DNA from: Planktothricoides sp. SR001 | Lineage (GTDB): Bacteria; Cyanobacteriota; Cyanobacteriia; Cyanobacteriales; Laspinemataceae | Length of the DNA: 64,000 nucleotides | Direction: 5' to 3' | NCBI RefSeq assembly: GCF_001276715.1 | Contig: NZ_LIUQ01000022.1 | Span: 1 to 64,000, forward strand | In this document: positions 14,174 to 43,513 of the stretch, piece by piece | Layout of the letters: each line of letters starts with the position of its first letter | Numbering within the stretch: position 1 is the first letter of the stretch | Made by a program: the position numbers and the translations under genes | The notes under the pieces: generated by a model | The model's input: the letters and a program-made list of their open reading frames with translations, nothing else | Databases searched by the model: none | What the model was told of the DNA's origin: nothing

Positions 14174-14331
14174 CTCCTGTGAATTGGGGCTAATATTGAG
14201 GCTAAGAATTTGTCATCAGGGTAATTTTAGGTTAAATTATGAAATCCAACCACTTTCAGGCAGTTACTAAGTTATAATACCTTGTATCCTTAAACCATGT
14301 TCCATTAGTAAAAAATCTTAATAATTGATCC

Positions 14332-14418
14332 AATCAACAATCAACAATCAAAGAATCCCTACCCAACAATCAAAGAATCCCTACCCAACAATCAACAATC
14401 AACAATCAACCAACAATA
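14332..14418. repeat. AACAATC heptad repeat with AAAGAATCCCTACCC insert
   Basis: A short tandem repeat of AACAATC units with two copies of CAAAGAATCCCTACCCAACA. The same composite string occurs in both orientations at 40.87-40.98 kb. It forms the 5' leader of the kinase gene at 14424 and happens to stay open in frame, which gives a false N-terminal extension rich in NNQ. Confidence 0.85.
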
Positions 14419-39360: not shown

Positions 39361-40830
39361 ATGAAACAATACTTATATGGACTCCTTGGAACCAGCTTTG
39401 CTCTGATCAATATAGCCGCTTTCCAGATTCAACAGAGTCAATCCGGGGCAGTTCCCCCTGTCCAAAATTCCGAAAACTTGTCCTCAATTCAGCTAGTCGC
39501 CCAGCAAACCATTCTCTATGTCGATCCGAAGCGGGGGATTGACTCAGCCAGCAGCGGAAAAGACCAGAATAATCCTTTAAAAACGATTACCGCTGCTTTG
39601 GAACAAGCCCAACCGGGGACAGTAATTCAACTAGCCCCCGGACGCTATAGTGCTGGAGAAATGTTTCCTTTAAACCTCAAACCTGGGGTGATACTTCGCG
39701 GCGAGGAAACCAATCACGGAGAAGGCGTGGTGATTACGGGAGGTGGGCAACATATTAGCCGGTCTTGGGCTGCCCAAAATGTGACGATTTTAGCCGATGA
39801 AAATACAGAAATTCGCGGCATTACTGTCACCAACCCTAACACCAGAGGCACGGGAATTTGGGTGGAAAATACCAATCCGCTGATTCGGAATAATACTTTT
39901 GTCAATAATAATCGCGAAGGAGTTTTTGTTTCAGGAACCGGGGCGCCGGTAATTGAAAATAATCAGTTTATGTACAATGGCGGCAATGGCATCTCCGTCA
40001 CTCGTCAAGCCAGTGGAGAAATTAAAGGCAATATTTTTATCGATACTGGGTTTGCTCTGGCAATTGGCCATGATTCTACCCCACTAATTTTAAATAACCA
40101 AATTCGGCAAAACCGCATTGGTTTGGTAATTACGCAAAATGCTCGGCCAACTTTGCAGGGTAATTTGATTGAAAATAATAGCGAATATGGTATGGCAGTA
40201 ATTGCCCAAGCGGAACCAGAAGTAGCCGCTAATAACATTTTTCGCAATAATGAACGGGAAAATTGGCTAGTGTCTCGGCAACCACAAGGAATGCCCCCGT
40301 TACCAGAAGCAAACGGCAGCACAAACGGCACCACAAACAGTTGGAACGGCACTACAATGACCACCGCTGCGACTTTTTTTTCTTGTCAGCCTTATGGGGA
40401 TGGATTTGCTACCATCGCTCAAGGGTCAATGGCATCAATTCCTCAGCCAATGATCATCTGGAAAACCTATGAATTTGATGCTCCAGAAAATCGCTGCATC
40501 CAAAGTACGGAAAAATTAAATCAGTTAGTGGTTGCTAATGGCGGAAAATTAGACAAGATGATGTTTGCCACCGGACGAGTGAATAATGATAAAGCGGTGT
40601 GTTTGGTGACAGATGTTTATGAAAGTTGTCAGCCGAAAAATATGGTGTTTAAACTGAGTCAGCAAAATGCCGATAATTCTGCCGAAGTTTTGAGACGTTT
40701 GATTGGTTTTACTATTCAAGGAGGTGGGAATCCGGTGCAGGAGGTTGGCCCAGAAGCGATCGCCCCTCTGCGTCCAGTCAGTGAAAATTTACAGCCAGAA
40801 TTAGGTTTATGGTTTGTTGAATTACCGTAA
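39361..40830 (+). CDS. Exported beta-helix (DUF1565) protein with COP23 domain
   Basis: A 489-residue secreted protein with AGGAG nine bases before the ATG. A signal peptide-like N-terminus is followed by DUF1565 (LYVDPKRGIDSASSGKDQNN then PLKTITAALEQAQPGTVI) and a right-handed parallel beta-helix of NN-rich rungs (NPLIRNNTFVNNNREGVFV type, about 140-310). A short Thr/Asn linker precedes a C-terminal COP23 domain (FFSCQPYGDGFATIA, PQPMIIWKT, NRCIQSTEKLNQLV, ATGRVNNDKAVC). COP23 was first described as a circadian-oscillating membrane protein; its biochemical role is not known to me. The next gene is a longer paralogue with a protease domain. Confidence 0.85.
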   Translation: MKQYLYGLLGTSFALINIAAFQIQQSQSGAVPPVQNSENLSSIQLVAQQTILYVDPKRGIDSASSGKDQNNPLKTITAALEQAQPGTVIQLAPGRYSAGEMFPLNLKPGVILRGEETNHGEGVVITGGGQHISRSWAAQNVTILADENTEIRGITVTNPNTRGTGIWVENTNPLIRNNTFVNNNREGVFVSGTGAPVIENNQFMYNGGNGISVTRQASGEIKGNIFIDTGFALAIGHDSTPLILNNQIRQNRIGLVITQNARPTLQGNLIENNSEYGMAVIAQAEPEVAANNIFRNNERENWLVSRQPQGMPPLPEANGSTNGTTNSWNGTTMTTAATFFSCQPYGDGFATIAQGSMASIPQPMIIWKTYEFDAPENRCIQSTEKLNQLVVANGGKLDKMMFATGRVNNDKAVCLVTDVYESCQPKNMVFKLSQQNADNSAEVLRRLIGFTIQGGGNPVQEVGPEAIAPLRPVSENLQPELGLWFVELP

Positions 40831-40831
40831 T

Positions 40832-41130
40832 TTTTGTTGATTGTTGATTGTTGATTGTTGATTGTTGGTTGTTGGGTAGGGATTCTTTGATTGTTGGTTG
40901 TTGATTGTTGATTGTTGATTGTTGATTGTTGATTGTTGTTGGTTGTTTGTTCAACAACCAAAGAATCCCTACCCAACAACTAACAACCACCGACCACCAA
41001 AAGAATCCCTCCCCACCAACAACCACCAACTAAAAACTAACAACTAACAACTAACAACTAACAATCATCAACTAACAACTACCAACTAACAACCACCAAC
41101 CACCAACCAATAACCAACAACCACCAACCA
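40832..41130. repeat. Long heptad repeat array between the beta-helix genes
   Basis: About 300 bp of TTGATTG/TTGTTGG units turn near 40950 into the complementary CAACCAA/CAACTAA units, so the array could fold on itself. It contains AAAGAATCCCTACCC and its complement, as at 14.35 kb. Open frames through it are repeat translations. It fills the whole spacer between the two paralogous genes. Confidence 0.9.
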
Positions 41131-41146
41131 ACAACTAATCACAAAA

Positions 41147-43513
41147 ATGCTTCAATCGCTTTTACGTTTTTTACTGAGTACCACGGCGGTATTAGTGATT
41201 ACTTTACCGCCGATTAAAACTATCGCTTTGACTGCGACAGAAGTAGAAGCGATCGCGTGGCAAGTTTCCGTATTAATTAGTCCGAATTTGACCGCGAAAG
41301 GAGATCGATTGTTAATTCCGGGTAGCAAAACAGGCAGTGGGGTGATTATTGGTCGAGAACGGAATTTAAATGGCGATAATTATAGCAATACTTATTATGT
41401 ATTGACCGCATTGCACGTCGTAGCCAAAAAAGGGGGATTTCATGCGATCGCGATGCCCGATGGGGCGGTGTATTATGTAGAGGCAAATCCCATGAGTGAT
41501 CGGATTATTCCCTTGGGAAAATTTGTTGGTGAGTTGGGTCAAACTATTGAGGGTTTAGATTTAGCCATTCTCAAATTTGTCAGCGATCGCGATTATGCGG
41601 TTGCCCCCATTGCCACAACTCCACCCAACCCCGGAGAACCAATTTTTATTAATGGTTGGCCAAACCCATTAAACTTAGGTAATATTCAGCGCGATCGCCT
41701 GTTCAATTCTGGCAATTTGCGTCAAATTGTTAATCCGCCTCAAGCTGATGGCGGTTACAGTTTTTTATATACCAATGAAACCGAATCCGGCATGAGTGGC
41801 GGGCCAATTTTTAACGGCGATGGAGAATTAATTGGCATTCATGGCAGAGGACGCGGCATTGAAAATCGTTGCAGCAGTCCAGAAATGAATTTAAACCACA
41901 GTTGTGGAATGCCAATTTTCCCCTTATTGCCGCAAATTGCTGCCCAAAAAATCTCTTTACCATTAAATCAAAATCCTGTAAGTATTGAAATAATTCAATA
42001 TGGTTTACGGTATCGCGGGCAGAGCGATCGCATCCAGGGCGATCGATGGCCATTAACAGTTTTAGGAACCGTAATTAACCCAAATTTTGATGCAACCTTA
42101 GCATTGCCTAATCCCGAAACCAGCATCAATTCTACCTCGGTTAATGCGGCAAATAATGACAGCGGCAATCCGATGAACGCAGCAGCGAATGCCCAGAAAT
42201 CCTCGCCTGTTTATTATGTCAATCCCCAGACCGGAACCAATCATGCCACGGCGGGGAAAACTCCAGAAACTCCGGTTAAAAGTATTAGCTATCTGCTGCA
42301 AAGTTCATTGCTACCGGGTACAGTAATTAACTTAGCCCCAGGGATTTATAATAGTAGTAATGAAACCTTTCCCCTCAAGCTACCCACAGGGGTGATTTTG
42401 CAAGGCAATATGCCAGAATCCGGGAATCAAAATCAAGATAATCGAGAAGCTATCCGAGAAGTTTTAATTGTTGGGGGTGACTTTACTACGACTCGGAGTT
42501 GGGGTCAGCAAAATGTGACCATTGTCGCCAGCGATCGCAGTCAAATTAGTGGCGTGACGGTGAGTAATCCTCTGAGAAATGGCACAGGTATCTGGGTGGA
42601 AACAGGCAATCCCATAATTCGTGATAATATTTTCAGTAAAAATAATCGCGAAGGAATTTTTATTGGAGATAACGCCAGTCCAGCGATCGCCAATAATCAA
42701 TTTATTGACAATATCAGCAATGGAATTTCTATCAGCAATGAAGCCGGTGGAGAAATTCATGGCAATATATTTAAAAATAGTGAATTTGGGGTGGTGATCG
42801 CGGGCAATGCGGCACCATTTTTCACCCAAAACCAGTTTGACGGCCATCGCATTGGCTTGATTTTGACGGAACAAGCTCATCCTAAATTAAACAGTAATAT
42901 CATTGAAAATAATCGAGAATATGGCGTACTTAGTTTGTCTGCTGCTGACCCAGAAATTGCCAGTAATAATCAAATTCGGGGCAACCCCCTAAGTAATAAA
43001 TTAGCCGTGAAAAACCATGAATGGGGTTTACCATTACCAGCGGAATTATCCCCATCTTTAGTCTTTGGTTGTTTAGAATATGACGCGGGTTTAGCCACTT
43101 GGGTAAGCAATGGCAACACCTCCATTCCGCAACCGATGATTCTGTGGCCACCGGAATTACTCCAACCCACGAACCGTTGCCAAAGTGTAGCGGGTAAGTT
43201 AAATGGAATTGTTGCCCAGGTGGAAAATCCTTTAGACAATTTATTCTTAAAAACTGGTCGAGTCAATAATTCCCTAGTGGTTTGTTGGGTGTCCGACTGG
43301 CAGTCTAATTGTCAAGCGAATAATATGCTATTTCCCCTGCAAATAAATCAGGAGAGAATTAATCGGATTCAGCGACTCCGGGATTTACTGGTTTTTCCCA
43401 TAGCCCAACAAGGAAATCCGGTGCAACAATTAGAAGAAGAGGCGATCGCGCCTTTGCAATTTCTCAGTGAACGGTTACAATCACCCCCAGGGTTGTGGTT
43501 TGTCAAACCATAA
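41147..43513 (+). CDS. Exported trypsin-like protease fused to beta-helix and COP23 domains
   Basis: A 788-residue secreted protein. A signal peptide (LLSTTAVLVITLPPIKTIAL) is followed by a serine protease domain with the triad His in VLTALHVVA, Asp in GLDLAILKF and Ser in ESGMSGGPIF (about 30-260). DUF1565 (VYYVNPQTGTNHATAGKTPE) and a beta-helix of NNxF/NNxI rungs come next, then a COP23 domain (FGCLEYDAGLATWV, PQPMILWPP, NRCQSVAGKLNGIV, KTGRVNNSLVVC). From DUF1565 to the end it parallels the upstream gene, down to the final GLWFV. The pair therefore arose by duplication plus gain or loss of the protease module. Likely extracellular or periplasmic; substrate unknown. Confidence 0.87.
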   Translation: MLQSLLRFLLSTTAVLVITLPPIKTIALTATEVEAIAWQVSVLISPNLTAKGDRLLIPGSKTGSGVIIGRERNLNGDNYSNTYYVLTALHVVAKKGGFHAIAMPDGAVYYVEANPMSDRIIPLGKFVGELGQTIEGLDLAILKFVSDRDYAVAPIATTPPNPGEPIFINGWPNPLNLGNIQRDRLFNSGNLRQIVNPPQADGGYSFLYTNETESGMSGGPIFNGDGELIGIHGRGRGIENRCSSPEMNLNHSCGMPIFPLLPQIAAQKISLPLNQNPVSIEIIQYGLRYRGQSDRIQGDRWPLTVLGTVINPNFDATLALPNPETSINSTSVNAANNDSGNPMNAAANAQKSSPVYYVNPQTGTNHATAGKTPETPVKSISYLLQSSLLPGTVINLAPGIYNSSNETFPLKLPTGVILQGNMPESGNQNQDNREAIREVLIVGGDFTTTRSWGQQNVTIVASDRSQISGVTVSNPLRNGTGIWVETGNPIIRDNIFSKNNREGIFIGDNASPAIANNQFIDNISNGISISNEAGGEIHGNIFKNSEFGVVIAGNAAPFFTQNQFDGHRIGLILTEQAHPKLNSNIIENNREYGVLSLSAADPEIASNNQIRGNPLSNKLAVKNHEWGLPLPAELSPSLVFGCLEYDAGLATWVSNGNTSIPQPMILWPPELLQPTNRCQSVAGKLNGIVAQVENPLDNLFLKTGRVNNSLVVCWVSDWQSNCQANNMLFPLQINQERINRIQRLRDLLVFPIAQQGNPVQQLEEEAIAPLQFLSERLQSPPGLWFVKP

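What the first reader, a model, noticed from the sequence alone, without database searches (positions are those of the whole stretch)
39361..43513. Tandem exported beta-helix/COP23 proteins, one with a fused serine protease
Both genes share DUF1565, an Asn-rich beta-helix and a C-terminal COP23 domain ending in GLWFV. The second adds an N-terminal protease with an intact His-Asp-Ser triad. A secreted protease tethered to a beta-helix and COP23, beside a protease-free twin, looks like an enzyme and decoy/regulator or adhesin pair of unknown purpose.
Basis: partly seen in the sequence, partly recalled or inferred. Interest (0 to 1): 0.65.

Follow-up and report, generated by a model that had tools for sequence, protein, structure and literature searches.

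The report
Cyanobacterial protease–COP23 partner pair
Two neighbouring cyanobacterial genes make exported proteins, one of them a protease on a stalk, and comparison across genomes suggests that their shared, unexplained COP23 domain is a standing partner of secreted trypsin-like proteases.

Summary
ORF A (39361-40830) is beta-helix + COP23. ORF B (41147-43513) is trypsin-like protease (H90, D138, S217) + beta-helix + COP23. The tandem is conserved in 10 of 12 family genomes listed, under purifying selection.

The larger result lies outside the coordinates: COP23 and trypsin-like proteases recur together across cyanobacteria. In this genome 7 of 11 stand-alone COP23 genes are followed on the same strand by such a protease gene. 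In a sample of 81 COP23 genes, 40 have one within 1.3 kb or fused; 62 of 66 protease genes in those regions lie within 2.2 kb, all on the same strand. Proteases retrieved by protease sequence alone also sit beside COP23 (21 of 27 cyanobacterial loci, 0 of 8 others).

The commonest order is COP23, protease with an HtrA-like pocket, protease with a V8-like (Thr/His) pocket (27 of 38 clusters). Window gene B is a fused form, and a second, direct protease-COP23 fusion exists. A published Arthrospira RNA-seq table shows COP23 and two serine proteases with consecutive tags falling together, undiscussed.

Best reading: COP23 is the non-catalytic partner of a secreted protease. What the partner does (target, inhibit, fold) is unknown.

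The parts
39361..40830 (+). Gene A: exported right-handed beta-helix + COP23 protein, 489 aa, no protease domain
   Evidence: ORF; Pfam; orthologs in family f1; dN/dS 0.07
39538..40242 (+). A: DUF1565 / beta-helix match, aa 60-294
   Evidence: Pfam PF07602 5e-31, PF13229 6e-27
40378..40752 (+). A: COP23 domain, Pfam match aa 340-464; Cys 342, 379, 414, 423
   Evidence: PF14218 2e-16; AlphaFold model pLDDT 87, pTM 0.83; Cys list
40831..41146 (+). A-B spacer: heptamer TTGATTG repeats followed by partly complementary sequence, predicted long hairpin
   Evidence: inverted repeats; RNA fold -88.2 kcal/mol, z -6.3; heptamer matches
41147..43513 (+). Gene B: exported trypsin-like protease + beta-helix + COP23, 788 aa
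   Evidence: ORF; Pfam; 10 B proteins aligned; model pLDDT 84, pTM 0.62
41333..41839 (+). B: Trypsin_2 match aa 63-231; H90 (codon at 41414), D138 (41558), S217 (41795); T212 and H232 as in glutamyl-endopeptidase-like pockets
   Evidence: PF13365 1e-16; invariant residues; DegS/HtrA fold match E 7e-9 and Z about 21; SplB / glutamyl endopeptidase sequence matches
42038..42166 (+). B: disordered linker between protease and helix, aa 298-340
   Evidence: pLDDT below 50
42236..42997 (+). B: DUF1565 / beta-helix match, aa 364-617
   Evidence: PF07602 2e-22; VIA-align Z 24.6 to an alginate epimerase/lyase
43064..43441 (+). B: COP23 domain, Pfam match aa 640-765; Cys 642, 678, 713, 722
   Evidence: PF14218 9e-14; Cys list
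43490..43504 (+). B: C-terminal GLWFV (aa 782-786); GLWF invariant in 10 of 10 B proteins

Best explanation
COP23 is the dedicated, non-catalytic partner domain of a family of exported trypsin-like serine proteases of cyanobacteria. Usually the two are separate neighbouring genes. In this lineage COP23 was joined to a right-handed beta-helix (gene A), that gene duplicated, and the second copy was joined to a protease with a Thr/His V8-like pocket (gene B). The likely working form is a protease held on a beta-helix stalk with COP23 at the far end, in the periplasm or at the surface, accompanied by A as a protease-free subunit with the same helix and COP23. Shown: domains, triad, conservation, the gene association, two independent protease-COP23 fusions. 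Inferred: export, binding between COP23 and protease, preference for Glu, and assembly of A with B. The mode (targeting, inhibition or folding aid) is not resolved; targeting/tethering is my first guess, because COP23 persists as a permanent C-terminal domain of an enzyme with an intact triad.
For: Own genome: 13 COP23 matches; 7 of the 11 outside A and B are followed on the same strand by a trypsin-like gene. Sample of 81 COP23 genes in 78 regions: 40 have one within 1.3 kb or fused; 62 of 66 trypsin-like genes lie within 2.2 kb, all on the same strand. Six chromosomes: 16 of 27 COP23 have a Trypsin_2 match within 4 kb, against a mean of 0.41 and maximum of 5 in 20,000 random placings. Reciprocal: 11 of 11 fetched stand-alone relatives of B's protease (11 of 27 listed) have COP23 upstream on the same strand; in a scan by protease patterns, 21 of 27 other cyanobacterial loci, 0 of 8 non-cyanobacterial. 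Fusions: B, and a direct Trypsin_2-COP23 protein in another family (L127). A/B COP23 domains group with two stand-alone COP23 of this genome that precede proteases (97/88). Triad complete in 90 of 94 domains, the other four being cut matches. Arthrospira RNA-seq: COP23 -1.97, two serine proteases -2.08 and -2.10, tags RS07465/07460/07455 (PMC13114239 Table 1).
Against: 41 of 81 sampled COP23 genes have no protease nearby; 23 of these form one clade of long COP23 (100/100), so the rule cannot hold for the whole family. The models give no usable information on contact between protease and COP23 (pTM 0.62, no pair errors or coordinates returned). G079 has A and B on different contigs and G183 (same genus) shows neither at the threshold used. 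A long predicted hairpin lies between A and B, so co-transcription in the window is not certain. No biochemical data.
Confidence: 0.6

Rival explanations
1. COP23 is a substrate of the neighbouring protease: an exported protein that is cut to become active or is cleared, so gene adjacency reflects enzyme and target.
For: Same strand and proximity fit enzyme-substrate pairs too; a protease follows COP23 in nearly every cluster.
Against: COP23 is kept as a domain fused to the protease twice, and the model shows one compact domain with low confidence only at its ends.
Confidence: 0.15
2. COP23 and the proteases do not touch; they are exported envelope proteins kept in one transcription unit because they answer the same condition, and A and B are surface adhesins of which one carries a protease.
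For: Co-regulation in Arthrospira; kinase genes near 15 of 38 regions with proteases against 4 of 42 others; beta-helix fold shared with many polysaccharide-binding proteins.
Against: Shared regulation alone does not predict protein fusions, of which there are two independent ones; A-B stay together in G008 and G156 although the flanking genes differ.
Confidence: 0.17
3. The beta-helix is the working part: a polysaccharide lyase or epimerase acting on sheath polysaccharide, with protease and COP23 as accessories.
For: Best structural matches of B's helix are an alginate epimerase/lyase, pectate lyase Pel9A and AlgE modules, Z about 24.
Against: Sequence identity 12-18% in the helix rows; invariant residues of the helix in 10 B proteins are mostly Gly, Asn and hydrophobic. 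Active sites were not superposed. Most COP23-protease clusters have no helix.
Confidence: 0.08

Closest known systems
Stand-alone COP23 + trypsin-like protease gene pairs of cyanobacteria (found here; no report found in the searches)
   Same: Same two domains, same strand, adjacent; stand-alone members are the closest relatives of B's protease outside its orthologs
   Different: In the window both are fused through a beta-helix and the COP23-bearing gene is duplicated
Autotransporter serine proteases (SPATE / IgA1 protease type; recalled)
   Same: Chymotrypsin-fold protease followed by a right-handed beta-helix stalk
   Different: No autotransporter beta-barrel was reported by Pfam in B; the C-terminal position is held by COP23
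HtrA/Deg proteases
   Same: Best Foldseek matches of the protease domain are DegS structures
   Different: No PDZ domain match in B; pocket His232 where the HtrA-like members here have Asn
V8-like glutamyl endopeptidases and Spl proteases
   Same: Best sequence matches in the PDB; the catalytic region with the Thr before and the His after it aligns with SplB
   Different: Low similarity (E about 1e-4 at best); cleavage preference untested; fused to helix and COP23
Trypsin-co-occurring domains Trypco1/2 (Kaur et al. 2020, eLife, PMC7159879; passages read)
   Same: Idea of an accessory protein encoded next to trypsin-like peptidases
   Different: Different families; the paper does not mention COP23; those peptidases belong to conflict systems, whereas COP23 proteins carry export-type N-termini

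Membership tests
COP23 (PF14218) | Match above Pfam's cut-off | tested here: met
   60.4 and 51.8 bits against 27
COP23 (PF14218) | Circadian expression, as in the founding protein of Synechococcus RF-1 | not testable with these tools
   No expression data for this genome; founding paper known only through citing passages
Chymotrypsin-fold (S1) serine protease | His-Asp-Ser triad and fold | tested here: met
   H90, D138, S217 invariant in 10 of 10; DegS match E 7e-9
HtrA/Deg protease | PDZ domain after the protease domain | tested here: not met
   No PDZ match up to E 1 in B
Glutamyl endopeptidase (V8-like) | S1-pocket His plus Thr five before the catalytic Ser | tested here: met
   T212 and H232 invariant in 10 of 10 B proteins; same region aligned with SplB. 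That these residues set Glu preference is recalled
Glutamyl endopeptidase (V8-like) | Cleavage after Glu | not testable with these tools
   Needs an assay
Autotransporter serine protease | C-terminal autotransporter beta-barrel | tested here: not met
   No such Pfam match up to E 1 in B; COP23 at the C-terminus
Right-handed beta-helix, DUF1565 | Match above Pfam's cut-off | tested here: met
   108.3 and 80 bits against 20.3
Polysaccharide lyase / mannuronan epimerase | Catalytic residues in the helix groove | tested here: inconclusive
   Fold match Z about 24; invariant residues read, active sites not superposed
Trypco-type conflict system | Trypco1/2 domain and NTPase conflict core nearby | not tested
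   Defence libraries were not run; no match of this kind in Pfam of A or B

The most novel reading that the evidence does not exclude
COP23 is the shared control subunit of a cyanobacterial two-protease relay: an HtrA-pocket protease and a V8-pocket protease, encoded in that order after COP23 as separate genes or as one chain with TPR scaffolds, work in series in the periplasm or outside the cell, and the window's A-B pair is a stalk-mounted version that keeps only the second protease.
Probability: 0.25. Interest if true: 0.82.

Novelty: new variant of a known kind. Interest (0 to 1): 0.62.

Why it matters
COP23 has been known as a strongly cycling cyanobacterial membrane protein since 1996 (Chen et al., cited in PMC6315102 and PMC11131595, passages read), and the 2024 paper still calls its function unknown. 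A strong, reciprocal link to trypsin-like proteases, with two fusions, gives most of the family's short subtype a concrete, testable partner. The repeated order of an HtrA-pocket and a V8-pocket protease suggests a proteolytic relay outside the cytoplasm of cyanobacteria, with several copies in some genomes, which none of the papers returned by the named searches describes.

Tried and rejected
A decoy reading of A: not supported; A is the slower-evolving, better conserved member (dN/dS 0.07 against 0.15), and HEL-COP23 genes also occur without B, three of them followed by a trypsin-like gene (L165, L166, L170).

A known fold for COP23: Foldseek found no match at E <= 0.001 (best 0.056); VIA-align best Z 4.5 over 56 residues, which may mean only a common arrangement; a profile search of PDB sequences gave nothing convincing. 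This does not show a new fold.

Named-organism scan with B alone found nothing; the alignment of ten B proteins found 42 loci. Anabaena exoproteome paper (PMC4390845, term search only): no mention of COP23 or trypsin-like proteases. Literature: COP23 + cyanobacteri 4 papers, COP23 + trypsin 0, 'COP23 domain' 1, PF14218 0; 'glutamyl endopeptidase' + cyanobacteri 9 listed, none on this by title and abstract start. Only open-licence papers are held.

Limits of the counts: of 69 fetched regions outside this genome, two (L143, L152) gave no COP23 ORF of 80 aa or more and dropped out; two COP23 matches below the cut-off (G221, G216) were not fetched. In one search only the main chromosome (C1) of each of six genomes was used; G168's C4 matches were left out. 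11 of 27 stand-alone B-like proteases were fetched. Some loci come from the same genomes, so these tests overlap. The A-clade and B-clade are each 100/99, but their sister relation is 92/86. Protease pocket types rest on alignment columns or, on a regular expression. The first COP23 tree was a quick one; supports quoted are from the finished one.
Full report
WHAT IS THERE. Pfam finds DUF1565/Beta_helix and COP23 in both and Trypsin_2 in B only. B has H90, D138 and S217; these, and T212 and H232 of the presumed S1 pocket, are identical in all ten B proteins aligned. AlphaFold with an alignment of 44 window and locus proteins gives three confident domains in B (about 30-270, 355-621, 639-780) and a disordered linker at 298-340 (pLDDT 84, pTM 0.62). 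The protease part matches DegS/HtrA structures (Foldseek E 7e-9; Z about 21); by sequence the best PDB matches are SplB and glutamyl endopeptidases. The helix matches polysaccharide lyases and epimerases in fold (Z up to 24.6 with 233 residues at 2.4 A). COP23 of A, modelled alone, is confident (pLDDT 87, pTM 0.83) and had no clear structural match.

IS IT UNIQUE OR DECAYING? Neither. In a survey of 194 genomes of the order, 12 genomes of this family are listed with a match; A and B are tandem in 10, on separate contigs in G079, and absent at the threshold used in G183. Seven named loci with B were found, in Laspinema palackyanum, L. olomoucense, another Laspinema, three Oscillatoria records and an Oscillatoriaceae record; six of the seven also hold A. 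A and B fall in two clades of ten (each 100/99), consistent with one duplication before the genera split. Mean dN/dS among six close genomes is 0.07 (A) and 0.15 (B; protease part 0.13, COP23 part 0.13). In four of the six Laspinema-type loci (the other two contigs are too short to tell) the pair sits beside the same phycobilisome gene as in the window, but in G008 and G156 the flanks differ and the pair is intact, so the two genes stay together when their surroundings change.

THE WIDER PATTERN. The genome has 13 COP23 matches. Of the 11 outside A and B, 7 are followed on the same strand, within 1.2 kb, by a gene for a trypsin-like protease. I then fetched up to about 19 kb around the COP23 matches above the cut-off in a 69-genome survey of the phylum. 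With the own-genome regions, 78 regions gave 81 COP23 ORFs: 40 have a trypsin-like gene on the same strand within 1.3 kb or in the same chain. Seen from the other side, 62 of the 66 trypsin-like genes in these regions lie within 2.2 kb of COP23 on the same strand; the other four lie 2.7-9.2 kb away. In six chromosomes, 16 of 27 COP23 have a Trypsin_2 match within 4 kb, against a mean of 0.41 and a maximum of 5 in 20,000 random placings; all 32 such protease matches (of 81) are on the same strand. The 41 COP23 without a protease include a clade of 23 long proteins (100/100), none of which has one; leaving these out, 40 of 58 do.

RECIPROCAL TESTS. Stand-alone proteases most like B's were found by B's sequence, not by COP23. 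All 11 that I fetched, of 27 listed, have COP23 upstream on the same strand. A scan of named genomes with two protease motifs gave 42 loci: seven are B itself; of the 27 other cyanobacterial loci 21 have COP23 upstream on the same strand and 6 do not; none of the 8 non-cyanobacterial loci has COP23.

TWO KINDS OF PROTEASE. The triad is complete in 90 of 94 protease domains; the other four are cut matches. By two pocket positions they split into Thr/His (40) and Ile/Asn (31), with smaller variants. In 27 of 38 clusters outside the A-B family, an Asn-type protease precedes a His-type one, as two genes or as one chain (my count); of the long chains examined, most carry TPR and one (a single-protease chain) WD40 repeats. 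B is of the His type. Further arrangements: a direct protease(His)-COP23 fusion with no helix (L127), and separate adjacent genes in the order helix, COP23, COP23, protease, protease (L124). The window thus shows modules fused that elsewhere are neighbours.

EXPRESSION. A published RNA-seq table for Arthrospira platensis exposed to polyethylene lists GDL46_RS07465 (COP23, -1.97), RS07460 (serine protease, -2.08) and RS07455 (serine protease, -2.10) as down-regulated, among 25 genes shown of 238 changed (PMC13114239, table and passages read). Consecutive tags imply neighbouring genes; Arthrospira sp. PCC 9108 has COP23-protease-protease in that order (L205). The paper's text names COP23 only in the table.

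HOW IT MOST LIKELY WORKS. The best reading is a partner: COP23 binds and directs (or restrains) an exported protease, and in this lineage both are mounted on a beta-helix, with A as a protease-free subunit. Shown are domains, conservation, association and fusion. Inferred are export (hydrophobic N-termini in 91 of 92 COP23 and 81 of 83 protease ORFs by a simple, lenient score), binding, Glu preference and A-B assembly. The alternatives (substrate, mere co-regulation, polysaccharide enzyme) are set out with refuting results.

NOVELTY. The domains are known; the fused architecture and the COP23-protease association are in none of the papers that the named searches returned, which cover only open-licence texts. 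I call it a new variant of a known kind: an exported protease with an encoded accessory protein.

Noticed in passing
window 40831-41146: A-B spacer made of TTGATTG-type heptamer repeats that fold into a long predicted hairpin (z -6.3); two more heptamer runs at 14331-14407.
   Followed up: partly
L040, L041, L044, L045, L091 and others: Ser/Thr kinase genes lie within 7 kb of COP23 in 15 of 38 regions with proteases and 4 of 42 without; one carries a PPC domain that is also on an HtrA-like protease of another cluster, another a PsbP-like domain.
   Followed up: partly
L207 and L208 (Laspinema): COP23 followed by three or four consecutive His-type protease genes on one strand, a local expansion.
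   Followed up: no
C-terminus of A, B and other helix-COP23 proteins: LWF motif in 31 of 31 helix-COP23 rows and 0 of 81 stand-alone COP23 ORFs; perhaps an anchoring or export signal.
   Followed up: partly
L043, L097, L101 and 20 more: A single clade of long COP23 proteins (about 230-335 aa) never found near a protease; possibly a separate function under the same Pfam name.
   Followed up: partly
L213, L216: Trypsin-like proteases without COP23 nearby in two records titled Prochlorococcus.
   Followed up: no
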